Source: an uncultured Lachnospiraceae bacterium (lineage in GTDB: Bacteria; Bacillota; Clostridia; Lachnospirales; Lachnospiraceae). Taken from it: DNA of 50,169 nucleotides. The first letter of the stretch is position 1. The number at the start of each line of letters is the position of its first letter. Made by a program: the position numbers and the translations under genes. Positions 13,443 through 50,169 of the stretch are shown one piece after another. The stretch covers positions 1-50,169 of the forward strand of contig ONHG01000026.1 of NCBI GenBank assembly GCA_900317585.1, given 5' to 3'. The notes under the pieces are model-generated. The model was not told the origin of the DNA, ran no database searches, and was given only the letters and a program-made list of their open reading frames with translations.

Positions 13443-14420
13443 ATGTTTGATATAATAATAATAGGCAGTGGTCCGGCAGGACTGTCTGCAGCAATATATG
13501 CAAAGAGAGCCAATCTGAATGTGGCAGTAGCAGAAAAAGAATACGAGGGAACAGGCCAGATAGCCGAGAGCGGAAATGTGAACAACTATCTGGGGCTTCC
13601 CAACATAAACGGATACGACCTGGGAGAAAAATTCAGGGAGCATGCAGTGTCTCTTGATGTAGAATTTATCGAAAAAGAAGCAGTGCAGATAGAAGCAGTG
13701 CAAAATTGTGAGAAAGAAGAACCAGCGATATACAGAGTGAAATTCGATGATGACACGATAGCAGAGGCAAGAGCGCTCATCTATACTGCAGGAGCATATC
13801 CGAGAAAGGCAGGAGTGCCGGGAGAGGATGAGTATACCGGTAAGGGAGTATCTTACTGTGCAATCTGTGACGGAGCATTCTATAAAGGAAAGACAGCCGC
13901 AGTGCTGGGCGGCGGAGATACCGCTTTGGATGATGCATTATATCTGTCCGATATATGTGAGAAGGTCTATCTGGTTCACAGAAGAGACAGCTTCCGCGGT
14001 GCACAGAGCACAGTTGAGCTCTTAAAGCAGAAAGAAAATGTAGAGCTTGTCCTAAACGAAGCAGTGACAGAAATATATGGAGAAAAGAAGCCAACAGGCA
14101 TAAAGCTTAAAAGTGGCAGGACATTGGCTGTAGACGGAATATTCGTGGCATATGGCTCAGTACCGCAGTCAGAGCTTATAAAGAATCTGGTGCAGCTTGA
14201 TGAGAGAGGATATGTAGTGGCAGGTGAGGACGGCATCACATATGCTGCAACAAAAAATGGTGACCATGATAGAAACGTCCAGCCGGGACTGTATGTGGCG
14301 GGAGATGTCCGTACCAAGACACTGCGTCAGGTGGTAACCGCAGTATCTGACGGAGCAAATGCTGCAACGACAGCCGCAGAGTATTTAAGGGACATTAATG
14401 GTTATAAACAAAATATATAA
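13443..14420 (+). CDS. trxB: Thioredoxin reductase
   Basis: This 325-residue FAD enzyme reduces thioredoxin. It shows the N-terminal FAD site IIIIGSGPAGLSAAIYAKR, the redox pair C139-A-I-C142 in SYCAICDGAFY, a second Rossmann motif GGGDTALDDALYL with HRRDSFR for the NADPH phosphate, and the C-terminal GLYVAGDVR. I start at 13443 because AAAGGA lies 9 bases upstream; an in-frame ATG at 13425 precedes that site. Next to the sulfur operon, which contains its own thioredoxin, it probably feeds electrons to that protein. Confidence 0.9.
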   Translation: MFDIIIIGSGPAGLSAAIYAKRANLNVAVAEKEYEGTGQIAESGNVNNYLGLPNINGYDLGEKFREHAVSLDVEFIEKEAVQIEAVQNCEKEEPAIYRVKFDDDTIAEARALIYTAGAYPRKAGVPGEDEYTGKGVSYCAICDGAFYKGKTAAVLGGGDTALDDALYLSDICEKVYLVHRRDSFRGAQSTVELLKQKENVELVLNEAVTEIYGEKKPTGIKLKSGRTLAVDGIFVAYGSVPQSELIKNLVQLDERGYVVAGEDGITYAATKNGDHDRNVQPGLYVAGDVRTKTLRQVVTAVSDGANAATTAAEYLRDINGYKQNI

Positions 14421-14452
14421 CCACGCACAAATAATTTGTATAACTGATAGCA

Positions 14453-14481
14453 TTGACTTTCAACCCACACGTTTGTATAAT
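14453..14481 (+). promoter_or_regulatory. Promoter of the metY-sulfur operon
   Basis: TTGACT (14453-14458), 17 bases, TATAAT (14476-14481), giving a leader of about 55 bases before the first metY. The promoter lies inside a possible longer reading frame for metY and thus argues for the start at 14543. Confidence 0.75.
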
Positions 14482-14542
14482 AATCTCATCAATTCCTAGT
14501 AACACAATAGACTATGTAAGAATTAACGAGAAGAAGAAAACA

Positions 14543-15775
14543 ATGAGATTTAATACAAGCTTACTTCATGCCGGCGTGACAAAAGAGACAAATGGCTCTA
14601 CACTGCCACCGGTATATCAGACAAGCGCCTTCGAGCAGGAGAGCGCGGCAGATCTGGAAAAAATATTTGAAAACAAAGCTCCGGGCTACTGTTACACAAG
14701 AGTTGCCAATCCTACGATTACAGCTTTTGAGAACAGAATAACAAAGCTCGAGGGAGGAATAGCATCGGTGGCATGCGCATCAGGCATGGCGGCACTGATG
14801 AATACCTTCTTAAATATACTAAGCAGTGGAGATGAGCTCATCTCAAGCGCCAGCCTCTACGGTGGCACAATAGATTTGTTCCATGATCTTGAGGCCTTCG
14901 GCATCACAACCAGATATGTCGAGAACAACAACTGGCAGCAGATAGAGGACAGCATCAATGAGCATACCAGACTGATTTTTGCAGAGACTATCGGTAATCC
15001 CTGTCTGGATGTCACAGATATTGAGAAGCTTGCAGAGATAGCACACGCACATGATATACCGCTTGTAGTTGACAATACCACATCGACAGCTTACCTGATA
15101 CAGGTTTTAAAGCATGGAGCTGATATCGTGGTCAATTCATCTTCCAAATATATAAATGGAAGCAGCAATGCAATCAGTGGTATTCTGACAGACTCAGGTA
15201 AGTTCAAATGGGACAAGAACAGATATCCGGGTTTTGCAGATTATGTGAAGTATGGACCTATGGCATTTGTCGCAAAGCTGAGAAACAGTCTTTTCAGAAA
15301 TATGGGTGCCTGTTTAGCTCCGGTGAATGCATACTTAAATATTATAGGACTTGAGACACTCGGTCTTAGAATGGAAAGAGAATGCTCTAATGCACTCGAG
15401 CTTGCGTCGTGGATAGAAAACAATTATCCTGACATAAAGGTTAATTATCCGGGGCTTGAGAGCAGCAAATGGCATGAAATAGCAAAAAAACAGCTCACAA
15501 ACGGCTATGGAGCAATCCTTACAATCAGGGTTGGCAGCAAGGAAAAGGCATTTAAATTTATAGACAGCTTGACGATTCCATACACACTCAGCAATATCGG
15601 AGATACGAAGACACTTGTCATTCATCCGGGCTCCACAATCAGTCTTCACAGCACAGATAAGCAGAAGGAGGATGCAGGAGTATTTGAGGATCTTATAAGA
15701 GTCAGCGTGGGTATCGAGGATATAGATGACCTCAAGGAGGATTTTGCACAGGCTTTTGCAAATATAGCTGATTAA
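14543..15775 (+). CDS. O-acetylhomoserine sulfhydrylase-like PLP enzyme (MetY 1)
   Basis: A 410-residue Cys/Met-metabolism PLP enzyme. It shows GYCYTRVANPT near the N-terminus, a cofactor-binding ASGMAALMN, the ETIGNP segment, VVDNTT, and the PLP lysine in VNSSSKYINGSS. The family replaces the acetyl group of O-acetylhomoserine with sulfide. Here it heads a set encoding sulfite reductase, a ThiS-like sulfur carrier, its adenylase and a JAMM protease. It could therefore use the carrier thiocarboxylate as sulfur donor, as MetY does in Wolinella succinogenes. Start at 14543 lies downstream of the promoter. A second MetY is encoded at 23413. Confidence 0.85.
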   Translation: MRFNTSLLHAGVTKETNGSTLPPVYQTSAFEQESAADLEKIFENKAPGYCYTRVANPTITAFENRITKLEGGIASVACASGMAALMNTFLNILSSGDELISSASLYGGTIDLFHDLEAFGITTRYVENNNWQQIEDSINEHTRLIFAETIGNPCLDVTDIEKLAEIAHAHDIPLVVDNTTSTAYLIQVLKHGADIVVNSSSKYINGSSNAISGILTDSGKFKWDKNRYPGFADYVKYGPMAFVAKLRNSLFRNMGACLAPVNAYLNIIGLETLGLRMERECSNALELASWIENNYPDIKVNYPGLESSKWHEIAKKQLTNGYGAILTIRVGSKEKAFKFIDSLTIPYTLSNIGDTKTLVIHPGSTISLHSTDKQKEDAGVFEDLIRVSVGIEDIDDLKEDFAQAFANIAD

Positions 15776-39895: not shown

Positions 39896-40927
39896 ATGAA
39901 AAAAAATCCCTTTTCATTATCATTTGGCAAGGAACCGGTCAGTTTAATTAACCGTAATGTCCAGTCATATGAGATAATTGATACCTTTGAAGATGAAAAT
40001 CCTGCTTACCAGGTGTGTATGATTACAGGAGTCAGAGGCTCAGGGAAGACTGTAATGCTCACAGAAATCAATAAAACGTTTGTGGCAGAGGACGACTGGA
40101 TAGTTATCGATCTGAGTCCTGAACGTGATTTATTACAATCATTTGCTGCAAATCTGAGCAATTATCCAAGTTTGTCAGAGGTATTTCGTGAAGCTAAAAT
40201 AAATCTGTCATTTTTAGGGCTGGGCGTTGAAATAGAAGGTGCTTCTCCAATCACCGATTTAAATGTCGCAGTGACGAGGATGCTTGAAAAGATTAAAAAG
40301 AAGCATAAGAGAGTTCTTGTGACGATAGACGAAGCTGTATGTAATGATACAATGAAAGAGTTTGTCAGCCTGTTCCAGATATATATGAGACAGGATTTGC
40401 CGGTATTTTTGCTTATGACAGGTCTTTATGAGAATATTTATGAGCTTCAGAATGAAAAGACTCTCACATTTTTATACAGGGCACCTAAAATTGAGCTTCG
40501 TCCGTTGAATATAGGCATGATAGCTGAAAAATACAAGTCAATTTTTGAATTGTCGGATGAGGAAGCCACAGAGATGGCTAAAGAGACAAGGGGATATCCG
40601 TTTGCCTTCCAGGTACTGGGGTATCTTTGTTTTAAGCATAATACCGGATGGCATAATGTATTACCTGAATTCAGTCAGTATCTGGAGGAATATGTATACG
40701 AAAAGATATGGAGTGAACTGTCAAAAGGTGATAAGGAATTGTTGATTGCTATGGCAAAAACCAATGACACAAAAGTGGAAGCAATAAGAAAGACTATAAA
40801 AAAAGCATCAAACAGTTTCAGTGTATACAGGAACAGGCTTATAAAAAAAGGCTTGATTATTTCACCGGAGTATGGACATTTGGAGTTTACACTCCCAAGG
40901 TTCAAAGAATTTGTGTTGTGTAGATAA
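39896..40927 (+). CDS. AAA/STAND-type ATPase
   Basis: A 343-residue ATPase. TGVRGSGKTVML near residue 48 is Walker A and RVLVTIDEA near 145 is Walker B. FLLMTGLYENIYEL contains a sensor-like segment and TRGYPFAFQVLGYLCF resembles the lid region of archaeal-type and STAND ATPases (GYPxxxQ). The C-terminal 80 residues (TIKKASNSFSVYRNRLIKKG and PRFKEFV) look like a winged helix. The family includes stress and defence regulators, but function here is not determinable. It stands alone behind the AGTTATAAA repeats. Confidence 0.75.
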   Translation: MKKNPFSLSFGKEPVSLINRNVQSYEIIDTFEDENPAYQVCMITGVRGSGKTVMLTEINKTFVAEDDWIVIDLSPERDLLQSFAANLSNYPSLSEVFREAKINLSFLGLGVEIEGASPITDLNVAVTRMLEKIKKKHKRVLVTIDEAVCNDTMKEFVSLFQIYMRQDLPVFLLMTGLYENIYELQNEKTLTFLYRAPKIELRPLNIGMIAEKYKSIFELSDEEATEMAKETRGYPFAFQVLGYLCFKHNTGWHNVLPEFSQYLEEYVYEKIWSELSKGDKELLIAMAKTNDTKVEAIRKTIKKASNSFSVYRNRLIKKGLIISPEYGHLEFTLPRFKEFVLCR

Positions 40928-40939
40928 TTATTGCACTGT

Positions 40940-41024
40940 CGGGATGCTTGAGGCAGCAGGGATAGAGTCTAATAAGGTCAGGGTTGATGTGCAGGATGGA
41001 AGGCTTGTGATATCGCGGATTTAA
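40940..41024 (+). pseudogene. Fragment resembling an AbrB/MazE-type antitoxin tail
   Basis: In the frame ending at TAA 41022-41024 the sequence reads VGMLEAAGIESNKVRVDVQ followed by DGRLVISRI, with no start codon that gives a full protein. The pattern resembles the C-terminal half of an AbrB-like or similar small antitoxin. It is offered with low confidence as a decayed gene. Confidence 0.3.
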
Positions 41025-41031
41025 AGATATA

Positions 41032-41142
41032 TTAATCAGCAACCATAGTCTTGAGATCCTTCTTAAAGTCTGTAATTCTATACTTTATAAAATTGAGTAT
41101 GCCATCCTGATTAAGCTTATCCATAAATGCGTGGAATATCAT
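41032..41142 (-). pseudogene. Small ORF or gene remnant of 36 codons
   Basis: On the minus strand an ATG at 41142 opens 36 codons ending LKTMVAD. It is basic with a hydrophobic start and has no known family. There is no convincing ribosome site. It probably represents the end of a decayed gene. Nothing else is recognisable between 40928 and 41240 apart from short ATTTATG repeats near 41140-41170. Confidence 0.25.
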
Positions 41143-41240
41143 TTATGTTCGAATTTATGTCATTTATGCAGATTTGATTGCAAATGAATTATAGATTGTA
41201 TATTATTTATTATAGAGTAAGTTTAGAAAAGGAATACAGG

Positions 41241-41969
41241 ATGATGTACAGAATTGGAATATGTGATGATGAAGAAGCGTGTAGAATAAAAATATCGGAA
41301 AGTATAAGAAATATAGCTTTAAAAAACGATATAGAAGTTAAAATAATCCAGTATGAGTCAGGAATTCAGGTTATGGATTGTGAGAAACCTGATATATTGA
41401 TACTAGACATAGAGATGGAACACATAGATGGTCTGGAAGTCCGTGATTTGTTGGAACAGACGGACAATGAGGTACTGATTATTTTCTGTACTAGCCATGA
41501 TGAAATAATGAGTAAAGCATATGGGCGAAATGTTACAGATTTTATTAAGAAACCTGTGAGGGAAGAAGAAATTGAAAAGAAATTGCTTCATGCGATAAAT
41601 ATTATTAATAGAAGGGTAAAATGGATTTTTCTAAATACTATAAGTGGACTGACAAAGTTTAAAATTTCAGATATAGTGTATGGTATTGCACAGGGAAGGT
41701 ACTTAAAGATATACATGTTAGATGGGAGCGAATATTTTATTACAGATAAAGGTGTATCACAGCTTTATGAAATGTTGAAGGATATGAATTTTGCCAGAAT
41801 AAGCAGGAGTGTTATAATTAATTTTGAAAATGTTAATACAATTGGAGATGAGATAATTATGACAGATGGGGTGAAGCTAAAGAGTAGTAGAAGAATGAAA
41901 AAACAAATACAAGAAGATTTTTTTAATTATATGTGTAAAGTGGCAAGGGTTGAAAGAACAGATAGATGA
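41241..41969 (+). CDS. LytTR response regulator (AgrA/ComE-type)
   Basis: 242 residues. The receiver domain begins IGICDDEEACRIKI (acidic pocket), with the phosphorylated Asp in DILILDIEME near residue 57 and the conserved Lys in DFIKKPVRE. The LytTR DNA-binding domain (about 135-235) contains IVYGIAQGRYLKIYM, FARISRSVIINFENV and LKSSRRMKKQI. Start is the first of two ATGs (41241 and 41244) behind AAAAGGAA. Its stop overlaps the kinase start (ATGA). LytTR proteins bind paired 9-11-base direct repeats about 21 bases apart, and such repeats stand just after the kinase gene, so it most likely activates the export operon. Confidence 0.9.
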   Translation: MMYRIGICDDEEACRIKISESIRNIALKNDIEVKIIQYESGIQVMDCEKPDILILDIEMEHIDGLEVRDLLEQTDNEVLIIFCTSHDEIMSKAYGRNVTDFIKKPVREEEIEKKLLHAINIINRRVKWIFLNTISGLTKFKISDIVYGIAQGRYLKIYMLDGSEYFITDKGVSQLYEMLKDMNFARISRSVIINFENVNTIGDEIIMTDGVKLKSSRRMKKQIQEDFFNYMCKVARVERTDR

Positions 41970-43201
41970 TTTTAGAATTAATATTATTTGAATGGCTGAT
42001 ATGTAAGCTGAAGATTGGTGATATCAAGTTAAAAAAATATTTTGCGTTTATGCTCATAATGTTAATGCAGTTAGGTGAAATTATTGTTATCTTTATTCGA
42101 CCGACACAAAGCATATGGTATACCATATTAGCGCTTCCGAGTGCTTTAATTGCTACAGGGATACTATTCAAAGAAACGATGTGGCGTAAATTAGCAGTGT
42201 TTTTGTTTGCATATGGATATATCGATGTAATAGAATATCCGATTAAAATTATAGTTGGCAGCAATAATGAGTTAGTGGTATACATAATTACTATTATTAT
42301 AATTTGTCTTATTGGCAAAATAATAAATCAATTCAAAAAAGTATCGTCCATGATAGCGCGTATTGATCCTATATATTTTATGGCTTCGTCCATGATAGAA
42401 ATAATCAATATGGGAATAATTGTAATGACCGATGATATAATTTTACCTGGTCAGGATAGACTTAAAATTGTAATAAATGTATTAACAATGATTTCATTTG
42501 TTATGTTAGGAATATTTGGAATTGTTTTTTTGTTTTTGGGTGCATATAAGAAGCAGCTTGAGATAGATAATAAGATAAAACAAAACTATCTGATTATTCA
42601 AAAAGAACATTATAGTCAATTGTATTCTCATATGCGAGAAATACGGAAAATAAAACATGATATGAATGCTCATATAAATATATTGTATAATCTGTTAGAT
42701 ACAGAACAATACGATGAAGCTGTTAAGTATATATATGACATCAAAATGCATTATGATATAGGTAAAAAATTGGAATCATATTATGATAACGGAATAATTG
42801 ATGCAATTATCTATTACTTTAATCAAAAAAATCCATTAATTAAGTTTATTTGTATGGGAAATTTTAGCGGCAGGAATGAAATTTCTGATTTAACAATTTG
42901 TACAATACTTTCAAATTGTATTTCAAATGCAGTTGAAGCATGTAATAGATTACAGAAAAAAAAGAAAGAAATTATGATTAATATATCAAATGTGAAAAAT
43001 TATATGGTCATTATGATAGAGAACCCTATTGAATGGGAAGTTGATATATCTAAGTTGGGGAGATATACATCAAAGGATGATAGATTATCACATGGATATG
43101 GGGTAAGTAATATAATAGATGAAGTCAGGTTGTGTGAAGGAAATTATAACTTTTGCTCAGATGATGGAAAGTTTAGTGTAAGTATTGCAATAAAAAAATA
43201 A
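41966..43201 (+). CDS. AgrC-like sensor histidine kinase
   Basis: 411 residues. Residues 1-205 contain six or seven membrane helices without a large extracellular domain, as in peptide-sensing AgrC/ComD kinases. The H-box is IRKIKHDMNAHINIL, the N-box SNCISNAVEACNR, and the G-box SHGYGVSNI, marking a HATPase_c_5/GHKL-type kinase domain. It overlaps the regulator gene by 4 bases. No AgrB-like peptide cyclase is encoded nearby, so the ligand is probably a linear peptide exported by the neighbouring transporter. That is inference. Confidence 0.9.
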   Translation: MILELILFEWLICKLKIGDIKLKKYFAFMLIMLMQLGEIIVIFIRPTQSIWYTILALPSALIATGILFKETMWRKLAVFLFAYGYIDVIEYPIKIIVGSNNELVVYIITIIIICLIGKIINQFKKVSSMIARIDPIYFMASSMIEIINMGIIVMTDDIILPGQDRLKIVINVLTMISFVMLGIFGIVFLFLGAYKKQLEIDNKIKQNYLIIQKEHYSQLYSHMREIRKIKHDMNAHINILYNLLDTEQYDEAVKYIYDIKMHYDIGKKLESYYDNGIIDAIIYYFNQKNPLIKFICMGNFSGRNEISDLTICTILSNCISNAVEACNRLQKKKKEIMINISNVKNYMVIMIENPIEWEVDISKLGRYTSKDDRLSHGYGVSNIIDEVRLCEGNYNFCSDDGKFSVSIAIKK

Positions 43202-43202
43202 A

Positions 43203-43234
43203 TACCATTCGTTACAAAAAAAGTACCGTTCATT
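43203..43234 (+). promoter_or_regulatory. LytTR-type direct repeats
   Basis: TACCATTCGTT (43203-43213) and TACCGTTCATT (43224-43234) match at 9 of 11 positions and are spaced exactly 21 bases, two helical turns. This is the geometry of AgrA, ComE and BlpR sites; BlpR sites also contain ACCATTC. A TAGAAT at 43256-43261 is a suitable -10. Confidence 0.8.
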
Positions 43235-43305
43235 CTTAAGGTGTTGAAAACAAGTTAGAATAAGTGGTACTGTTTTTTATATAAACGAAAGAGAGGCACT
43301 AAAGA

Positions 43306-43368
43306 ATGAATAATACATCAATGAACAGTGACGTATGGCTTATAATAAAAAAACTATTAGGATTATAG
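43306..43368 (+). CDS. 20-codon ORF: candidate peptide pheromone
   Basis: A 20-residue peptide opening MNNTSMNSDV and ending in a hydrophobic, basic WLIIKKLLGL. GAGAGG lies 9 bases before the ATG and a stop (TAA) just upstream excludes a longer form. It is the first ORF behind the LytTR repeats and lies 32 bases before the exporter gene. It has no double-glycine leader, so if exported as a signal it would resemble short leaderless peptides. Alternatively it is a leader peptide that controls translation of the exporter. Confidence 0.5.
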   Translation: MNNTSMNSDVWLIIKKLLGL

Positions 43369-43400
43369 TTATTGAAATCTGGTTGATAAGGGAATAAAGA

Positions 43401-45638
43401 ATGAGATACACTTTCATAAAACAACATGATGCAACAGACTGTGCAGCAGCTTGCATGGGCATGGTCTGTCTGCACTATAAAAAAGAGACAACAATAACAA
43501 AATTACGTGATATGATGGGAACAGACCTGAAAGGAACAAACCTTATAGGATTGTCAAAGTGTGCAGAAGAACTTGGATTTAACTGTCAGGCTGTAAAAGT
43601 AGATAAAGAGGGTTTTGTTAGCAGATATACATTACCGGCTATAGCAAATATCGTGACAAAGGAAGGCTTATCGCATTTTGTAGTGATATTCAGGATCACA
43701 AAAAAGTATGTGATAATAGGTGATCCGGCTAAGGATTTAGAGCGACTGACTATAGACGAGTTTTATAAGAAATTTACAGGAGCCATGCTCCTGCTGAAAC
43801 CAAATAGTGAGTTTGAGCGTGAAAAGATAAAGGGAACGAAGTTATTTGACAGATATATAAAGTTGCTGCTTCCACAGAAGAAGCTGTTTATATATGCGCT
43901 TGTAGCCTCACTTCTGGTTACACTTCTGGGAATTTTATCATCACTTTTTAACAATATAATATATGATGAAATACTTCCGTATCAGCAAAAAGATGTATTA
44001 AAGATGATGCTTGCGGTATTTCTTGGAATATCACTGACATCTACATTTGTAAGTTTTGTGAGACAGTGGATTCTCATGCATCTGTCCATCAAAATTGATA
44101 TACCACTTATGCTGGGGTATTTTGAGCATATATACAAATTACCGATGAAATTTTTTGCGAGCCGTAAGACCGGTGATATTACAACCAGGTTTTCGGATGC
44201 ATTTACCATAAAAGACATATTTACCAGTATAGCATTATCACTGATCATGGACATATCAATGGCTTTGATAACCGGAGTAATACTTTTTCAGATGAACCCG
44301 AAGCTTTTTGCAGTGATCATAATGATGACACTCATAAGTATTGTACTCGTATTTATATTCAAGCAGCCATATAAGAAGATAAACGAAGAACAGATGCAGC
44401 AGTCATCTATACTCAACTCGGAAATAATAGAAGGGCTTCGCGCAGTTGAGACAATAAAGGGAAATGCCAATGAGGATATAGAGCTCGAAAGCATAGAGCG
44501 GGAATACATAAAATCTCTTAGGATAAGTTATAAAGAGGGTATGCTTTCAAATGTGCAGTCAACAATATCGAGTGTTATATCGGGAGTTGGGAATCTGGTG
44601 CTTCTGTATGTAGGAATAATGCAGGTCATAAATAACAACATGACGCTTGGAAGCTTCATGGCATTTAACACACTTGCGGGATACTTTATGGATCCTATAG
44701 GCAATCTGGTAAGCCTTCAGTTATCCATTCAGGAAGCAAATATTTCAATGAAGAGGCTTTCTGAAATCATGGATTATGAGAGAGAACAGAAAAGCGAGAG
44801 ACAGTATCAGGAGATATCAAGTATAGATGGTGATATTAAGCTTGATCATGTCACTTTCAGATACGGAAACAGAAAACCGGCTTTGGATGATGTGAGCTTT
44901 ATTATAGAAAAAGGACAGAAAGTGGCACTTGTGGGGGCAAGCGGAAGCGGAAAATCTACAATAGCCAAGCTACTGCTCAAATATTATGAGCCGGAGGCGG
45001 GGGATATAACTATAGATGGGATGGATATATCAGAATATAAGAATGACGATATACGTCATGCGATATCATATGTGCCACAGAATATAGAGCTTTTTTCAAA
45101 AAGTATTTATGACAATATAAGAGTTACGAGACAGAGTGCAACGCTTGACGAGGTAAAAGAGGCTGCCAAAGCCGCTGATGCCCATGAATTCATAAAGAGA
45201 CTGCCGATGCAGTATTATACTTATCTTGAGGAAGCAGGAAATGGTCTGAGTGGAGGCGAGAAACAGCGAATTGCACTTGCAAGAGCATTTCTAAAGGAAA
45301 ATCAGTTTTATATCATGGATGAATCCACAAGTAATCTGGATTTTGCAACGGAAAATATAATCTTCGATATGATATACAATAAATTCAGAAAAAAGACCAT
45401 GCTTATTATTGCGCACAGGCTTGCAACAGTAAAAAACTGTGACAAGATAATAGTCATGGATAAAGGGAAAATTGTAGAACAGGGAACACATCAGCAGTTG
45501 CTTGAGAGGAAAGGACTGTATTACAGATTGTGGGAAATGCAGCAGGGAAATTTTGTTATCAAAGAAGATTCAGATAAGGATGAACAGTTTGCTGAGAACT
45601 TTGAGAATGATGATGAGGGTGTAATGAGCTACACCTAG
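43401..45638 (+). CDS. Peptidase-containing ABC transporter (PCAT, C39 family)
   Basis: 745 residues combining three functions. Residues 1-130 are a C39 peptidase (QHDATDCAAACMG with nucleophile C14; SHFVVI with H92; IGDPAK with D108), which cuts double-glycine leaders. Residues 150-450 form the six-helix ABC membrane domain. Residues 480-720 are the ATPase (GASGSGKST Walker A, SYVPQNIELF Q-loop, LSGGEKQRIALARA signature, YIMDEST Walker B, IIAHR H-loop). It should process and export the two GG-leader precursors encoded downstream, together with the HlyD-type adaptor at 46928. An acidic C-terminal tail of 25 residues is present. Confidence 0.95.
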   Translation: MRYTFIKQHDATDCAAACMGMVCLHYKKETTITKLRDMMGTDLKGTNLIGLSKCAEELGFNCQAVKVDKEGFVSRYTLPAIANIVTKEGLSHFVVIFRITKKYVIIGDPAKDLERLTIDEFYKKFTGAMLLLKPNSEFEREKIKGTKLFDRYIKLLLPQKKLFIYALVASLLVTLLGILSSLFNNIIYDEILPYQQKDVLKMMLAVFLGISLTSTFVSFVRQWILMHLSIKIDIPLMLGYFEHIYKLPMKFFASRKTGDITTRFSDAFTIKDIFTSIALSLIMDISMALITGVILFQMNPKLFAVIIMMTLISIVLVFIFKQPYKKINEEQMQQSSILNSEIIEGLRAVETIKGNANEDIELESIEREYIKSLRISYKEGMLSNVQSTISSVISGVGNLVLLYVGIMQVINNNMTLGSFMAFNTLAGYFMDPIGNLVSLQLSIQEANISMKRLSEIMDYEREQKSERQYQEISSIDGDIKLDHVTFRYGNRKPALDDVSFIIEKGQKVALVGASGSGKSTIAKLLLKYYEPEAGDITIDGMDISEYKNDDIRHAISYVPQNIELFSKSIYDNIRVTRQSATLDEVKEAAKAADAHEFIKRLPMQYYTYLEEAGNGLSGGEKQRIALARAFLKENQFYIMDESTSNLDFATENIIFDMIYNKFRKKTMLIIAHRLATVKNCDKIIVMDKGKIVEQGTHQQLLERKGLYYRLWEMQQGNFVIKEDSDKDEQFAENFENDDEGVMSYT

Positions 45639-45652
45639 ATGATTAATTTTTG

Positions 45653-45671
45653 TATGTAAAAGCTTTACATA
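45653..45671. promoter_or_regulatory. Inverted repeat before precursor 1
   Basis: TATGTAAA-AGC-TTTACATA, 66 bases before the precursor start. A matching TATGTAA/TTACATA repeat precedes precursor 2 at 49377-49397, and the bases that follow are also alike. Operator or RNA element not resolved. Confidence 0.5.
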
Positions 45672-45736
45672 GAGTCAGGACTGTCTGCAGACGGGAATGG
45701 CAAAAATAAAACAAAGAGAAAAGGAGGTACACATAT

Positions 45737-46108
45737 ATGGATATGTGTTACGATGGAGCACTGGTGCTCCCTAGCAGTTATGCTGTTATGGAAGAAGAGG
45801 ACATGATGTATTTAGAGGGAGGAAATTGGAGCGTAAAAACTCTCTGGTATAATATTGTTGGGGCAGCCGGACAATATGGTGTGTTTAAAAGTATTTGTAA
45901 AAGAGTTTCAGTTAAAGGAAAAACGGTATGGGCATGGGCATGCTCTGCAGTTAGCTGGGCAAAAGATAAGGCAATAGGATATCTGGGTGCTTTTTGTGCG
46001 AAAATAGGAGTTGAAATGGCAACTGTTTCGAGATTGATTGGAGTAATTGTTGGCGTATCGACAGCGTTTGCAATAGGATATTTAGGAACACATAAAGTGT
46101 TTTACTAG
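45737..46108 (+). CDS. Double-glycine-leader peptide precursor 1
   Basis: 123 residues. Residues 1-29 form the leader CYDGALVLPSSYAVMEEEDM, ending LEGG, a PCAT cleavage signal; cleavage would release a 94-residue product beginning NWSVKTLW. The product is hydrophobic, Gly/Ala/Val-rich, cationic, with several GxxxG-like helix motifs (VGAAGQYG, IGYLGAF, IGVIVGV), in keeping with a membrane-active bacteriocin. Three cysteines are present. A strong AAAGGAGG ribosome site precedes it. The leader is almost identical to that of precursor 2 at 49467. I know no named family for the core. Confidence 0.85.
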   Translation: MDMCYDGALVLPSSYAVMEEEDMMYLEGGNWSVKTLWYNIVGAAGQYGVFKSICKRVSVKGKTVWAWACSAVSWAKDKAIGYLGAFCAKIGVEMATVSRLIGVIVGVSTAFAIGYLGTHKVFY

Positions 46109-46168
46109 ATGATATGTGTAGCTTTTTATACTCAAATGTATGGAGAGCTACACATTTTGGAGGATAAG

Positions 46169-46438
46169 ATGATTCAATATTTAGGTGAGCATAAACTTTT
46201 TAATGAAAAATACATTATATTTATTTTATTTTGTATATTCATAATTGAATTTAAAAGTTACTTTTCTCATAAAAATAAAGAAAAAGGGTATACATTGGTG
46301 ATTTCGTTAATGTACTTAGGGGAGGCAATATTATTTTTAATGCCTTATGAGAATTATATTGTTGATATTATGTGTACATTATTTGGAATAGTGTTAATTT
46401 TAAGCTTAATCTTGAGATACAAAAGTAGAAAAGGATAG
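46169..46438 (+). CDS. Small membrane protein, possible immunity protein
   Basis: 89 residues with three predicted helices (IIFILFCIFIIEF, LVISLMYLGEAILFLM, IVDIMCTLFGIVLILSLIL) and a basic tail. I start at 46169 because TTTTGGAGGATAAG directly precedes that ATG, whereas 46109 only touches the precursor stop. Such short membrane proteins next to bacteriocin precursors often confer self-immunity. That is inference from size, topology and position; I see no family match. Confidence 0.6.
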   Translation: MIQYLGEHKLFNEKYIIFILFCIFIIEFKSYFSHKNKEKGYTLVISLMYLGEAILFLMPYENYIVDIMCTLFGIVLILSLILRYKSRKG

Positions 46439-46440
46439 AA

Positions 46441-46920
46441 ATGAGTAGTATAAAAATATATGAAAATAAAACGTTTAAATTAAATAATGTATTAAAATAT
46501 GAGTTTCATTCTGCAGATGAGAATAATGAAAAGGATATTGACCTGGAAATACAAAAAATGAATGTATATATACAAACGCATGGTTATAAACAGATTGGAC
46601 CTTTAATTCAATATTCGGATATATGTGTGTATGATGGAGATAAAATTGATGTACATATGATATTTATGCTCCAGGCGAACAGCTTTATCCACAACGTAGA
46701 GCAGCCATATAGGATGGAGTCTCTGTTGCGTGTAAAAAACTGTCTGTATGCCAGATATAACGGACCGGAGGACAAGCTGAAGTTCGCTTACGATAAGCTT
46801 GGGGTGTATGCATTTGAGAATGATATTGAGCTGGATGGCTGCAATTATACGATCTACGTAGACAGAAACGAAGAAGAAGAGACAATGGTTGCAGATGTAT
46901 TCATGCCTGTAAAGGAATAA
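46441..46920 (+). CDS. GyrI-like/effector-binding domain protein
   Basis: 159 residues without a membrane segment. GPLIQYSDI, a second half VKNCLYARYNGPEDKLKFAYDKL (split at GPED) and the end YTIYVDRNEEEETMVADVFMPV follow the pattern of the GyrI-like, AraC-effector-binding fold. No DNA-binding domain is attached. Two bases after the membrane protein gene and seven before the HlyD-type gene, it is part of the operon. It might bind a peptide or other small ligand or protect the producer; unproven. Confidence 0.65.
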   Translation: MSSIKIYENKTFKLNNVLKYEFHSADENNEKDIDLEIQKMNVYIQTHGYKQIGPLIQYSDICVYDGDKIDVHMIFMLQANSFIHNVEQPYRMESLLRVKNCLYARYNGPEDKLKFAYDKLGVYAFENDIELDGCNYTIYVDRNEEEETMVADVFMPVKE

Positions 46921-46927
46921 AAGCGTT

Positions 46928-48058
46928 ATGAGCAGAAGAGTTAAGAGTTTAGATGAAATAAGGGAATCGAGAATACTGTTTGATAAGAATCCACCGGCAT
47001 TCGGCTATATACTTATAACAGTTGTAGCTGTTTTTCTTATTGTGGCAGTAGTATGGAGTATAAAAACACCGAAGGTGTATACCATACAGGCACAGGGTAC
47101 TGTGACGAATGATGAGTCAAATTATGTCATGTGCAGCTATACGGGAGAGATTCTTGACAGCAACATGGAAGAGGGCGCACTTGTGGAAGCCGGGGATGTG
47201 CTTTTTACAATTAAAAGCACTGATTATGATCTGCAGCAGACACAGCTTGAAGACAACAGAAAATCATATGAAGAACAGATATCACAGTATAGTCTTCTTA
47301 TAAAATCAATAAAAGACGATACCAATTATTTTGACGAGACAAAAGCGGATGACGGTCTGTACTGGAGTCTTTTTGAAACCTACAAATCACAGGTGGAACA
47401 GAATAAGGTTGATGTGTCAACGTATCAGGCATATGGATATACTGATGAGCAGATACAGGCACAGCTTGAAACAAATCAGGGGAAAATAGACGAAGTATAT
47501 TATTCTGCAATACAGTCGGCAGAAGCCAAGATCGCAGAGGCGGACCAGCAGATTAAATCAATTGATGCGCAGCTTGCGGCAGTATCGGGAGGACAGGATT
47601 CCTATGAAGTAAAGGCAACAGCATCAGGCGTGCTTCATATGCTGGGCAATTATAAGAGCGGAATGGTTGTACAGACAACGACAACTGTGGCAACGATCAC
47701 ACCGGAAAATTCGCAGAGATATCTCGAAGCATATGTTTCCACATCTGATATGGCGAGAATGCATGAGGGAGACAGAGTGCAGGTGGTTATGGACGGTCTG
47801 TCACAGAATGTCTATGGGACGATAAGCGGAAGCGTATCACGGATAGACAGCAATGTCACTACACAGGAAGGGCAGGATGGAGCGACAAGCCGGGCGTTTA
47901 AAGTGATGATAGTGCTAGACCAGGATTATGTGCTGAGCCGTGAGGGAGACAAGGTAGACGTGACTAACGGTATGACGGCGGCTGCAAGGATACAGTATGA
48001 TAAAGTCACATATTTTAACTATGTGCTTGAGAAACTCGGAATAAAAACCGGAAAATGA
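46928..48058 (+). CDS. HlyD-type periplasmic adaptor (bacteriocin secretion accessory)
   Basis: 376 residues. One N-terminal helix (residues 28-46) anchors it. A lipoyl-like half follows (MCSYTGEILDSNMEEGALVEAGDVLF split by its turn), then a coiled coil of about 110 residues rich in Gln/Glu (around 80-210) and the returning half-motif (VKATASGVLHMLGNYKSG) with a beta-barrel end. It would link the PCAT to the exterior, as MesE/ComB proteins do in class II bacteriocin export. ATGA overlaps the next gene. Confidence 0.88.
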   Translation: MSRRVKSLDEIRESRILFDKNPPAFGYILITVVAVFLIVAVVWSIKTPKVYTIQAQGTVTNDESNYVMCSYTGEILDSNMEEGALVEAGDVLFTIKSTDYDLQQTQLEDNRKSYEEQISQYSLLIKSIKDDTNYFDETKADDGLYWSLFETYKSQVEQNKVDVSTYQAYGYTDEQIQAQLETNQGKIDEVYYSAIQSAEAKIAEADQQIKSIDAQLAAVSGGQDSYEVKATASGVLHMLGNYKSGMVVQTTTTVATITPENSQRYLEAYVSTSDMARMHEGDRVQVVMDGLSQNVYGTISGSVSRIDSNVTTQEGQDGATSRAFKVMIVLDQDYVLSREGDKVDVTNGMTAAARIQYDKVTYFNYVLEKLGIKTGK

Positions 48059-49371
48059 CATGGGATAAGGTTATGGAGTTGAGAAATAGAATCAGAATAT
48101 TTGCTGTTATATTTATACTGGCTTTGGGTATGGAGTACTTACCAATGGCGGTATATGCTGCAGAAGTGACAGCGGAAGAAAGCGATATGGCAAATGATGC
48201 AGAACCGGATATGGATGAGACCCCGGAAACGGACAATGCATCAGAAACGGACAATGCATCAGAAACGGACAATGCATCAGAAACGGACAAGGAAGACAAA
48301 ACAGACGTAAAGGATATGGAACAGAATATACCGGTAACGGATATCGAGATATCAGATCATGAGGAGAAAGTGGAAGTAGGAAAGACAATAAACCTTACAG
48401 CCACGGCACTTCCGGCGAATGCCACGGAAAGCACGATAACCTTCCGTTCATCTGATATAAATATAGCAACTGTGACTTCCGGAGGTGAAGTAAAGGGTAT
48501 CTCAAAAGGATATGTTACCATATATGTATCTGCCGGAAGTATAATAAAAGAGGTAAATCTGACAGTAAAAGTAAAAACCACCGGAATAAATATAAATAAA
48601 GAATATCTCGTAATGAAGCCGGGAACGACATTTAAACTGAGCGTATCTGTGTTTCCGGCAGAGGCAGAGCAGGCGGTTTCATACAAATCAACCAACACAT
48701 CAGTTGCAGCAGTATCGGGCAGTGGTGTGGTAACGGCAAAACAGACAGGTTCAGCTACAATAATAGTTTCAAATGGGGATTTGTCGGGCGCTGTTTCGGT
48801 AATCGTAAACAGAGATATGGAAAGTTCTGTGGCTGAACCTGAGGCAGCAGATAGTACAGAAGCAGAAAATACAAGTGAACAGACATTTGATGAAAATACG
48901 GATGTATCCGAAACACCTGTAATAAGTGAGCAGATGCTATATGAACTGTACAAAGCAGGCAGATCAATGAAAGTGACCGGAGACGGCTACAGCATCATAA
49001 TAGACGGAAAGAAGATAGTAAATTATAAAAATGAACTTAATACGGATATAGAACTCGAAAGGGCAGGAGACTGCATAAAATTCAATCTAAACGATGGAGA
49101 GTATCTGTGCGGAGAAGTGACACTGCACATAGATGATGTAAAAGGGAAATATCTGTATCTATATAATAACGTAAAGCATAAATACGAACTTGTGAGTACA
49201 GAGGACATGAGCGGGCTTAATTTAAGCACACCAGGAAAGTATATGATCACGGCAAAGCCCATCAGAGAGGGAGGCACAGCGGTCAGATATATACTGATTG
49301 CAGGTGGAATCGGCATAATTGCAGGAATAGCTGTGTATGTGGCGGTAAAGAGAAGATACTGGTTCTGGTAA
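48055..49371 (+). CDS. Surface protein with two Ig-like (BIG_2) domains
   Basis: 438 residues. A signal peptide covers about residues 11-35, cleaved near VYAAEV. Residues 50-85 are acidic with a threefold NASETD repeat. Two bacterial Ig-like domains follow (about 95-175, VTDIEIS...KVEVGKTINLTATALP; and 175-255, LVMKPGTTFKLSVSVFP), then an acidic linker and a beta-rich region. A C-terminal helix (YILIAGGIGIIAGIAVYVAV) with a basic end anchors it. An alternative ATG exists at 48073. An Ig-like surface protein inside a peptide export operon is unusual; it may act as a receptor, a scaffold or an immunity factor. Confidence 0.82.
   Translation: MTWDKVMELRNRIRIFAVIFILALGMEYLPMAVYAAEVTAEESDMANDAEPDMDETPETDNASETDNASETDNASETDKEDKTDVKDMEQNIPVTDIEISDHEEKVEVGKTINLTATALPANATESTITFRSSDINIATVTSGGEVKGISKGYVTIYVSAGSIIKEVNLTVKVKTTGININKEYLVMKPGTTFKLSVSVFPAEAEQAVSYKSTNTSVAAVSGSGVVTAKQTGSATIIVSNGDLSGAVSVIVNRDMESSVAEPEAADSTEAENTSEQTFDENTDVSETPVISEQMLYELYKAGRSMKVTGDGYSIIIDGKKIVNYKNELNTDIELERAGDCIKFNLNDGEYLCGEVTLHIDDVKGKYLYLYNNVKHKYELVSTEDMSGLNLSTPGKYMITAKPIREGGTAVRYILIAGGIGIIAGIAVYVAVKRRYWFW
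48226..48289 (+). repeat. 18-base tandem repeat, about 3.5 copies
   Basis: GAAACGGACAATGCATCA repeated at 48226, 48244 and 48262, with a partial fourth. It encodes ETDNAS units in the acidic stalk. Copy number may vary between strains. Confidence 0.85.
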
Positions 49372-49376
49372 AGGTG

Positions 49377-49397
49377 TATGTAATCATGATTTACATA
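49377..49397. promoter_or_regulatory. Inverted repeat before precursor 2
   Basis: TATGTAA-TCATGAT-TTACATA, 70 bases before precursor 2. It and the following ATARAGTCA stretch mirror the segment before precursor 1. Confidence 0.5.
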
Positions 49398-49466
49398 AAG
49401 TCATGCCCGGTTGCAAACAGACATGGCAGAAAAATAATGTTTAGAAGAGAACAGGAGGAAAACAAA

Positions 49467-49679
49467 ATGGAATTATGTTACGATGGAGCATTGGTGCTCC
49501 CAAGCAGTTATGCTGTAATGGATGAAGAGGAAATGTGCTATACGGAAGGAGGGTGGAGTGGACGTCAAGTACTTAAGAATATATGTGGAATTCTTGCAGT
49601 ATTTTCATTAGGTTATGCAGGGGCTGCATTTAGACATTTTGTTGAAAAAATAAGGGATTATCATATGGAAGAATGTTGA
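49467..49679 (+). CDS. Double-glycine-leader precursor 2 (probably frameshifted)
   Basis: 70 residues. The leader CYDGALVLPSSYAVMDEEEM ends TEGG and is nearly identical to that of precursor 1, in DNA as well as protein. The 41-residue remainder begins WSGRQVLKNICG and includes SLGYAGAAFRHFVEKI, comparable to IGYLGAFCAKI in precursor 1. Start at 49467 follows AACAGGAGGAAAAC. After an A6 run at 49645-49650 the reading frame that continues the homology is the -1 frame, so the last residues (RDYHMEEC) may be out of frame. If intact, it is a short second bacteriocin-like peptide. Confidence 0.75.
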   Translation: MELCYDGALVLPSSYAVMDEEEMCYTEGGWSGRQVLKNICGILAVFSLGYAGAAFRHFVEKIRDYHMEEC

Positions 49680-49798
49680 GTAAAGCAGGTGGAACTTTAT
49701 TGAGATTTATCAAAGCGGTTCCATGGCAGGTAAAGGTGACTATAGGAGTATGCACAGCAGCAACTCTGTATGCATTAGGATCATACGATTTATTTTAA
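49673..49798 (+). CDS. 41-codon ORF overlapping precursor 2
   Basis: Starts with an ATG seven bases before the end of precursor 2 (ATGTTGA) and encodes MLSKAGGTLLRF, then a hydrophobic VTIGVCTAATLYALGSYDLF. This tail resembles the end of precursor 1 (VIVGVSTAFAIGYLG). Its frame is open back to the A6 run at 49645, so it can be read either as the shifted C-terminal part of precursor 2 or as a coupled second peptide. No separate ribosome site is visible. Confidence 0.55.
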   Translation: MLSKAGGTLLRFIKAVPWQVKVTIGVCTAATLYALGSYDLF

Positions 49799-49824
49799 AA
49801 TAAAGTGCTATATTTGTGTGTTAA

Positions 49825-50007
49825 CCAGTAGAATAGTTCTTTGTCATTCTGGTGGCGCTTATGCCAAATTGTTAAGTAGTTATTCTCCCCGCAAGGGGAA
49901 CAATATAGAAGCCGGAGTCTCCTCACGTGGGAGGCTCGAACCGAGTGTTTAACTGATTTTATTAAACATTATGATTATTAACAATACTTCGGTGAATTTT
50001 AATGTTT
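49825..50007 (+). ncRNA. Hairpin-rich region, candidate structured RNA
   Basis: No gene is visible from 49799 to the window end. Successive hairpins occur: CCAGTAGAAT/ATTCTGGTGG (49825-49855), TCCCC-GCAA-GGGGA with a GNRA tetraloop (49886-49899), GAGTCTCC/GGAGGCTC (49915-49937), and AAACATTA/TAATGTTT (49964-50007) enclosing AC-UUCG-GU. Stable tetraloops in series point to RNA. The class is not recognised. Further stems lie to 50169 (CCGGGA/TCCCGG; GAGGGC/GCCCTC), so the element may continue beyond the window. Confidence 0.5.
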
Positions 50008-50018
50008 AGGAGCCGCAT

Positions 50019-50168
50019 CTAAACCAAAACAAGAAGTAAACAACCCAAAATAACCGGGACAAGGAGGAACCTCCCGGGAACGCTGAAGCGCATACCGCGG
50101 GCCATCAAAAATGCGAGGGCAGCCCCTATCTTGGAGCCGCCCTCTCTTTCGAGTCTGATCCTCTCATC
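50019..50168 (-). other. Possible partial reading frame entering from the right
   Basis: On the minus strand about 49 codons are open to the window edge, ending in a hydrophobic run (FLLVPVILGCLLLVLV). GC content is well above the neighbouring operon. It may be the C-terminus of a membrane protein on a transferred segment, or simply the complement of a structured RNA; the evidence does not decide. Confidence 0.25.
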
Positions 50169-50169
50169 A

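What the first reader, a model, noticed from the sequence alone, without database searches (positions are those of the whole stretch)
41241..49798. Self-regulated peptide secretion locus with twin precursors and an Ig-like surface protein
AgrA/AgrC-like signalling, LytTR repeats, a 20-codon ORF, a PCAT exporter, an HlyD adaptor and two precursors with almost identical GG leaders form a full quorum-controlled bacteriocin-type system. Unusual parts are long hydrophobic cores unlike known class II bacteriocins, a GyrI-like protein, and a surface-anchored protein with two Ig-like domains in the operon. AgrB is absent. I know no described system with this set.
Basis: partly seen in the sequence, partly recalled or inferred. 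Interest (0 to 1): 0.78.

Follow-up and report, generated by a model that had tools for sequence, protein, structure and literature searches.

The report
Modular bacteriocin-export locus with swappable cargo
A gut bacterium carries a gene set that probably makes, guards and exports small antibacterial proteins, with interchangeable cargo and an unusual soluble helper protein that may keep the cargo from harming its own maker.

Summary
The locus is real. It belongs to a recurrent set: PCAT exporter + soluble GyrI-like protein + HlyD + membrane-anchored Ig (Big_2) protein, complete in 14 of 27 loci holding the GyrI-like family. Its cargo are precursors with about 100-residue cores behind one leader type (33 precursors, 18 core groups). 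DNA shared with a relative ends at or just inside the leader's 3' end, so cargo is exchanged behind a constant leader. GyrI-like and Ig proteins are core parts, not oddities. By profile comparison the GyrI-like family resembles DUF5085, whose studied members are cytosolic antitoxins of glycine-zipper toxins; I propose a shared pre-export guard. Precursor 2 in the window is split by a frame change relative to an intact homologue. It works like pneumococcal blp; killing and signalling are untested. New variant of a known kind.

The parts
41241..41969 (+). LytTR response regulator
   Evidence: Pfam Response_reg 4.3e-16 and LytTR 1e-11
41966..43201 (+). AgrC/ComD-like GHKL histidine kinase, 5 hydropathy segments
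   Evidence: Pfam HATPase_c_5 4.1e-17
43204..43234 (+). paired LytTR-like direct repeats (operator candidate)
   Evidence: pattern made from it matches once in 50 kb, 0.00 expected; repeat pairs also before PCAT in L010, L032, L034, L047, L067, L068
43306..43368 (+). 20-codon ORF, candidate leaderless signal peptide
   Evidence: an ORF with ribosome site and Trp is reached in 3 of 1000 shuffles of the intergenic stretch
43401..45638 (+). PCAT: C39 peptidase-ABC exporter, catalytic Cys/His/Asp motifs and Walker motifs present
45652..45704 (+). two-hairpin element before precursor 1
   Evidence: covariation; model R1 54.0 bits, built with this sequence
45737..46108 (+). precursor 1: 29-aa GG leader (45737-45823) + 94-aa core
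46109..46438 (+). 109-aa membrane protein, candidate cognate immunity protein
   Evidence: three hydropathy segments, position
46441..46920 (+). GyrI-like / DUF5085-like soluble protein, candidate cytosolic guard
46928..48058 (+). HlyD-type adaptor
48055..49371 (+). signal-like N-terminus + 2 Big_2 domains + C-terminal domain shared with L009 + membrane anchor
49376..49430 (+). two-hairpin element before precursor 2
   Evidence: covariation; model R1 71.6 bits, built with this sequence
49467..49679 (+). precursor 2, frame-interrupted copy (leader 49467-49553)
   Evidence: intact homologue L012:8676-9008
49673..49798 (+). remaining coding stretch of precursor 2 in another frame

Best explanation
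It is a class II-like (blp-like, colicin V-like) bacteriocin-export platform. Shown from sequence: a constant 29-residue leader ending in Gly-Gly, a PCAT with intact C39 and ABC motifs, HlyD and Ig accessory proteins, and exchangeable ~100-residue cores, most of them followed by an ORF with a predicted membrane segment. Inferred: the kinase senses a secreted signal, perhaps the 20-codon peptide; the LytTR regulator binds the paired repeats and switches on the operon; the GyrI/DUF5085-like protein holds the hydrophobic precursor harmless in the cytosol and is stripped off as PCAT cuts the leader and exports the core with the help of HlyD and the Ig protein; the core permeabilises rival membranes; the 109-aa membrane protein guards the producer from outside. 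The two-hairpin element sits in front of modules and may control precursor expression or mark exchange boundaries.
For: Exporter and catalytic motifs. One leader type, 33 precursors, 18 core groups, median core 100 aa. The next ORF has a predicted membrane segment after 26 of 33 precursors against 120 of 288 other frames of 200 codons or more under the same rule, Fisher p=4e-5; one is a CAAX/CPBP protein, Pfam Rce1-like 3.9e-18, a family known from bacteriocin immunity (recalled). Leader and GyrI-like family co-occur: 11 of 14 leader genomes against 2 of 383 others, p=3e-17 (same 397-genome sample assumed). DNA shared with L011 ends at the leader-core junction or in the last third of the leader. 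GyrI-like family against DUF5085: hhalign 94.6%, E=6.6e-8 over 138 columns; unrelated control 0.2%. DUF5085 proteins TipE and ExiB bind glycine-zipper toxins in the cytosol (PMC10434224, PMC12744356, passages seen). Small-xxx-small-xxx-small patterns in 24 cores: 119 against 85.2 shuffled, 0/1000.
Against: Strict GxxxG and glycine-zipper motifs are not enriched over composition (194 and 238 of 1000 shuffles reach the observed count). The Pfam DUF5085 model itself finds 2 of 145 relatives, none at a GyrI-like locus: neither the window genome nor G015 matches, and the G468 matches lie on another contig. AlphaFold models of the GyrI-like protein (pLDDT 37.6) and Ig protein (49.8) are too poor for fold support. 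Eight of 33 precursors belong to a less hydrophobic family without small-residue patterns (11 against 10.7), which a zipper guard would not explain. Membrane ORFs also follow 120 of 288 other frames. No activity data.
Confidence: 0.62

Rival explanations
1. The GyrI-like protein is a small-molecule or peptide-sensing regulator of the operon (as GyrI/BmrR-type domains are), not a cargo guard.
For: 5 of 14 family members weakly match Pfam GyrI-like and 4 of 14 an NCBIfam transcription activator (best 8.4e-06).
Against: 159 aa with no DNA-binding domain reported by Pfam; encoded among export genes in most of the 27 loci (exceptions L048 and L072); full-length similarity to DUF5085; against L011 its N half is 38/81 identical and its C half 71/77, i.e. 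part of it changes where the cargo changes.
Confidence: 0.25
2. The exported peptides are signals or host-directed factors, not bacteriocins.
For: Kinase and LytTR regulator are adjacent; GG peptides can be pheromones (PMC7595303, passages).
Against: Cores are long (median 100 aa), hypervariable and more often than other genes followed by membrane ORFs, the pattern of bacteriocin-immunity pairs such as the pneumococcal BIR (PMC7595303, passages).
Confidence: 0.12
3. The 20-codon ORF is chance or an upstream translated leader, and the kinase answers to an outside signal or to a cargo peptide.
For: L034 and L067 have repeats but no such ORF; L036 has an ORF without Trp; L068 has repeats and only a 14-codon Trp ORF; no similarity between the peptides beyond Trp and hydrophobicity. 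The pattern was chosen after seeing the cases.
Against: Same slot, about 60-74 nt behind the repeats, with a ribosome site, in window, L010, L032 and L047; shuffles with such an ORF 3, 3, 31 and 10 of 1000.
Confidence: 0.5
4. The two-hairpin element is a DNA operator or recombination site rather than an RNA structure.
For: The second hairpin's loop is itself palindromic and stays so while changing (TTGCAA, CTGCAG, TCGCGA); elements sit at module boundaries, also before PCAT and the GyrI-like gene in L012.
Against: In the 20 hits the order is hairpin 1, hairpin 2, then the gene on the same strand; 10 of 17 pairs change on both sides, which fits either reading.
Confidence: 0.45

Closest known systems
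Pneumococcal blp bacteriocin-immunity region (BlpRH, BlpAB, BIR)
   Same: kinase and response regulator, C39 ABC exporter, GG peptides with a conserved leader, variable bacteriocin and immunity genes (PMC7595303, passages)
   Different: no BlpC-type GG pheromone recognised; cores about 100 aa; soluble GyrI/DUF5085-like protein and Ig membrane protein in the operon; two-hairpin element
T7SS LXG toxins with DUF5085 antitoxins (TelE-TipE, EsxX-ExiAB/ExiCD)
   Same: for EsxX, two-tier protection: soluble DUF5085 in the cytosol plus membrane proteins outside (PMC12744356, passages); TipE soluble antitoxin (PMC10434224, passages)
   Different: export by PCAT with GG leader instead of T7SS/LXG; one GyrI-like gene beside several cargos; window protein not recognised by the DUF5085 model
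Colicin V / class II microcins
   Same: GG leader, PCAT + HlyD, ~90-residue hydrophobic core (recalled)
   Different: Gram-positive type locus, no outer-membrane part, own regulators
agr quorum-sensing systems
   Same: AgrC-like kinase and LytTR regulator; relative L011 has an AgrB gene (Pfam 4.1e-31) and a 47-aa ORF before it, AgrD-like by position only, between its regulators and PCAT
   Different: no AgrB at the window locus

Membership tests
Class II GG-leader bacteriocin locus | GG leader of conserved pattern on a precursor | tested here: met
Class II GG-leader bacteriocin locus | adjacent PCAT with C39 and ABC motifs | tested here: met
Class II GG-leader bacteriocin locus | match to curated bacteriocin family (Pfam Bacteriocin_IIc) | tested here: not met
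   best 19.7 bits (L013) against cut-off 27.1; window precursor 2 15.9, precursor 1 none
Class II GG-leader bacteriocin locus | cognate immunity protein | tested here: inconclusive
   membrane ORF next to 26 of 33 precursors against 120 of 288 other frames; function not tested
Class II GG-leader bacteriocin locus | antibacterial activity | not testable with these tools
   needs experiment
agr system | AgrB and AgrD at the locus | tested here: not met
   AgrB model matches only contigs C12 and C34 of the genome; AgrD not searched by model
blp system | GG-leader pheromone gene | tested here: inconclusive
   only the two precursors carry this leader in G000; other GG leaders were not searched genome-wide
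DUF5085 (PF16895) | score above curated cut-off | tested here: not met
   G000 and G015 no match at 0.001; 7 of 14 family members weak at 0.1, best 1e-4
DUF5085 (PF16895) | full-length profile similarity | tested here: met
   94.6%, E=6.6e-8, 138 columns; 69.8%, 4.2e-5 with a two-row DUF5085 alignment
Glycine-zipper toxins | GxxxG-type motif beyond composition | tested here: not met
   40 against 35.3, 194/1000 shuffles
Rfam RNA families | two-hairpin element matches a known family | tested here: not met
   window 41000-50169 at E<=5: no match over the elements near a cut-off; L012, L047, L040, L036 at gathering score

The most novel reading that the evidence does not exclude
A polymorphic PCAT toxin platform in which one DUF5085-type soluble guard serves many exchangeable ~100-residue membrane-active cargos, cargo modules are exchanged at or behind a covarying two-hairpin element and the leader, and the operon is switched on by a new class of tiny leaderless Trp-containing peptides read by AgrC-like kinases.
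Probability: 0.3. Interest if true: 0.82.

Novelty: new variant of a known kind. Interest (0 to 1): 0.62.

Why it matters
If right, it extends cytosolic antitoxin guarding, which I saw described for type VII secreted toxins, to GG-leader bacteriocins, and explains how cells safely make long hydrophobic cargo. It also offers a simple leader + exporter + guard kit into which at least 17 unrelated cores have been plugged (18 groups, one of them a 14-aa remnant), and two testable new parts: a structured element before precursors and a candidate leaderless signal.

Tried and rejected
AlphaFold of the GyrI-like protein (2 rows, pLDDT 37.6) and of the Ig protein (3 rows, 49.8) was too poor, so no fold search was run. 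PDB sequence search with the GyrI-like alignment: none at 0.1. Viral contigs gave no relative of the GyrI-like or leader alignments, so no phage link was seen. Plasmid search with PCAT gave only matches under 60% identity. PHROGs gave one weak family of unknown function for precursor 1 (0.038) and none for the GyrI-like protein; PADLOC none for either; the Ig protein's PHROG hits are Ig domains of phage proteins. Strict GxxxG enrichment failed. RNAalifold alone kept only 3 pairs of the element; the hand-drawn structure was counted with controls. Of the 20 strong hits of the RNA model in 31 sources, 18 are the sequences it was built from and two are near-copies; in 397 genomes it hit 6 genomes at 8 places, again training places (stricter filters). 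So these runs show specificity, not sensitivity. Weak extra hits L011:14886 (0.041) and L048:3031 (0.059) were not pursued. Kinase search in 62 genus genomes (44 with matches): of 30 loci examined, only the window and L077 (same gene as in L047) showed kinase, repeats, tiny ORF and PCAT; similar repeats also stand before other genes (L096, L098, L099), so the repeats are not special to this system. GyrI-only genomes (G190, G224) and leader-only genomes (G304, likely chance in a 1015-aa frame; G335; G383) are exceptions to co-occurrence. Papers opened but of little use: PMC6563777 and PMC3482391 (passages). Script faults: one search took the wrong record, redone; one search ignored orientation, redone; one search used a faulty leader pattern, redone.

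Full report
What is there. The window's right end holds a regulator pair (41241-43201), a 20-codon ORF, a PCAT, precursor 1, a 109-aa membrane protein, a GyrI-like protein, HlyD, a Big_2 Ig protein, and precursor 2. Base composition is patchy: regulators 28.8% G+C, the 109-aa gene 24.5%, the first half of the GyrI-like gene 26.3%, its second half 42.5%, HlyD 43.3%, the first 39.9 kb 42.3%.

Relatives. A genome of the same genus (G015) has two such loci, L011 and L012. Window and L011 are 98.4% identical from 43385 to 45824 (PCAT to the leader of precursor 1) and 92% from 46538 to 49557; in L011 the stretch between (core, membrane ORF, start of the GyrI-like gene) and the regulators have no DNA match at E<=1e-3. 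Base 45824 is the first after the 29 leader codons; the aligned bases show mismatches gathering over about the last 30 nt of the leader. Against L012 the match ends at 45805 for precursor 1, but 46417-46940 matches at 81% and precursor 2 at 92.8% through its core. The regulators differ: L011 has its own LytTR regulator, GHKL kinase and AgrB, L012 another LytTR-GHKL pair. Gene order differs in L012, and PCAT pieces stand before extra precursors (L011:12008-12148, L012:7597-7809). So regulators, cores and membrane ORFs are exchanged around a constant exporter.

How widespread. The GyrI-like family was found in 13 of 397 family genomes, 4 of 62 genus genomes and, with a wider profile and a stricter limit, 11 of 392 order genomes; samples overlap in part. 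Of 27 loci with the family, 14 have PCAT, GyrI-like, HlyD and Ig protein together (window, L010, L011, L012, L030, L034-L038, L047, L066-L068); L031, L032, L033, L069, L070 lack parts on short or cut contigs; L039, L040, L048 are partial; L041, L071, L073, L074 are distant, with PCAT and HlyD but no Ig protein found; L072 has ABC matches only. The leader profile hit 14 of 397 genomes; 11 are shared with the GyrI-like hits, Fisher p=3e-17. This assumes that the two calls drew the same 397 genomes.

Cargo. With one pattern, 33 precursors were collected from the larger loci; one further (L035:5665) is only. Their cores fall in 18 groups at E<=1e-3, one being a 14-aa remnant; core length median 100 (32 counted, the remnant dropped, the interrupted window copy of 41 included). 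After 26 of 33 the longest next ORF within 300 nt has a predicted membrane segment; the same rule gives 120 of 288 after other frames of at least 200 codons in these loci, p=4e-5. Precursor 1 of the window is a group of its own. The intact homologue of precursor 2 is followed by a CPBP protein (L012:7936-8628); no such ORF follows in the window before the contig ends at 50169, so precursor 2 looks like a decaying cargo unit.

The GyrI-like protein. It is 159 aa and its Pfam matches are weak: 5 of 14 members GyrI-like, 7 of 14 DUF5085 at E<=0.1. Profile comparison with four DUF5085 proteins fetched from the same genus gives 94.6% and E=6.6e-8 over 138 columns, 69.8% with a two-row set; an unrelated control gives 0.2%. 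The DUF5085 model itself does not find the window protein. Two DUF5085 systems are characterised: TipE neutralises TelE, and ExiAB hold the glycine zipper of EsxX in the cytosol, while ExiCD guard from outside (PMC10434224 and PMC12744356, abstract and passages seen). By analogy I read the window protein as a shared pre-export guard. Its N half is less conserved than its C half (window against L011 38/81 and 71/77; against L012 41/81 and 76/77), as expected if part of it follows the cargo, but a recombination break inside the gene explains this equally.

Control region. Paired repeats ACCATTCGTT and ACCGTTCATT, 21 bp apart, lie behind the kinase gene; a pattern made from them matches once in the window, 0.00 expected. 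Similar pairs stand before PCAT in L010, L032, L034, L047, L067 and L068, and before other genes behind kinases elsewhere. In window, L010, L032 and L047 they are followed at about 60-74 nt by a 17-23 codon ORF with a ribosome site and Trp. Shuffles of the same stretches reach a repeat pair in 1, 4, 8 and 4 of 1000 (window, L010, L047, L032) and such an ORF in 3, 3, 10 and 31. The pattern was chosen after seeing the cases, so these numbers flatter it.

Two-hairpin element. TATGTAA-N-TTACATA occurs exactly twice in the window, 84 and 90 nt before the two precursor start codons; none expected (pattern chosen after seeing them). With a second hairpin it was aligned from 18 places: 83.6% of cells pair, 10 of 17 pairs change on both sides, no shuffle of 500 reaches any of five measures, and slid versions are far lower. 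The structure was drawn from these sequences, and several are close relatives, both of which favour it. A model of it hits 20 places in 31 sources at E<=4.5e-5, 18 of them its own training sequences: 16 before precursors (of 33), four before a truncated precursor, PCAT, the GyrI-like gene and a transposase. Rfam searches named no family for it. RNA or DNA role is open.

Literature. Eight paper searches (titles and starts of abstracts seen) listed no description of this set; the leader strings are in no held paper. PMC13289728 section 10 (read) describes rumen class II bacteriocins without naming these parts.

Verdict. A bacteriocin-export locus of blp type in a new variant. Killing, signalling, guard function and the role of the Ig protein are inferred, not shown.

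Noticed in passing
L010:5371-5835, L013:1-384, L030:4281-4670, L035:11858-12229, L038:13438-13821 and 14404-14796, L047:12257-12637, L066:13014-13427: A second cargo family with less hydrophobic ~100-aa cores (motif like EIYAHA..YY, then H.NPxDIG in several); four members scanned reach no Pfam cut-off; 8 of 33 precursors.
   Followed up: partly
window 40934-41035: Remnant 95% identical to the 3' end of an ABC transporter gene that precedes locus L011, suggesting that both species carry the locus at the same chromosomal site.
   Followed up: partly
G000:C12:23907-24437 and C34:33864-34373: Two AgrB genes elsewhere in the window's genome.
   Followed up: no
L071, L073, L074, L041: Distant GyrI-like relatives also sit near PCAT and HlyD genes in other bacteriocin-like loci, suggesting a wider role of this family in peptide export.
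   Followed up: partly
L116:1026-1932 and L115:1477-2372: Tandem DUF5085-like pairs in the same genus, resembling ExiAB pairs; neighbours look like small T7SS-type proteins but were not tested.
   Followed up: no
window 39896-40927: STAND/AAA-like ATPase of uncertain family upstream of the locus; all matches below Pfam cut-offs.
   Followed up: no
L040:12652-12957: Group II intron near a decayed copy of the locus.
   Followed up: no
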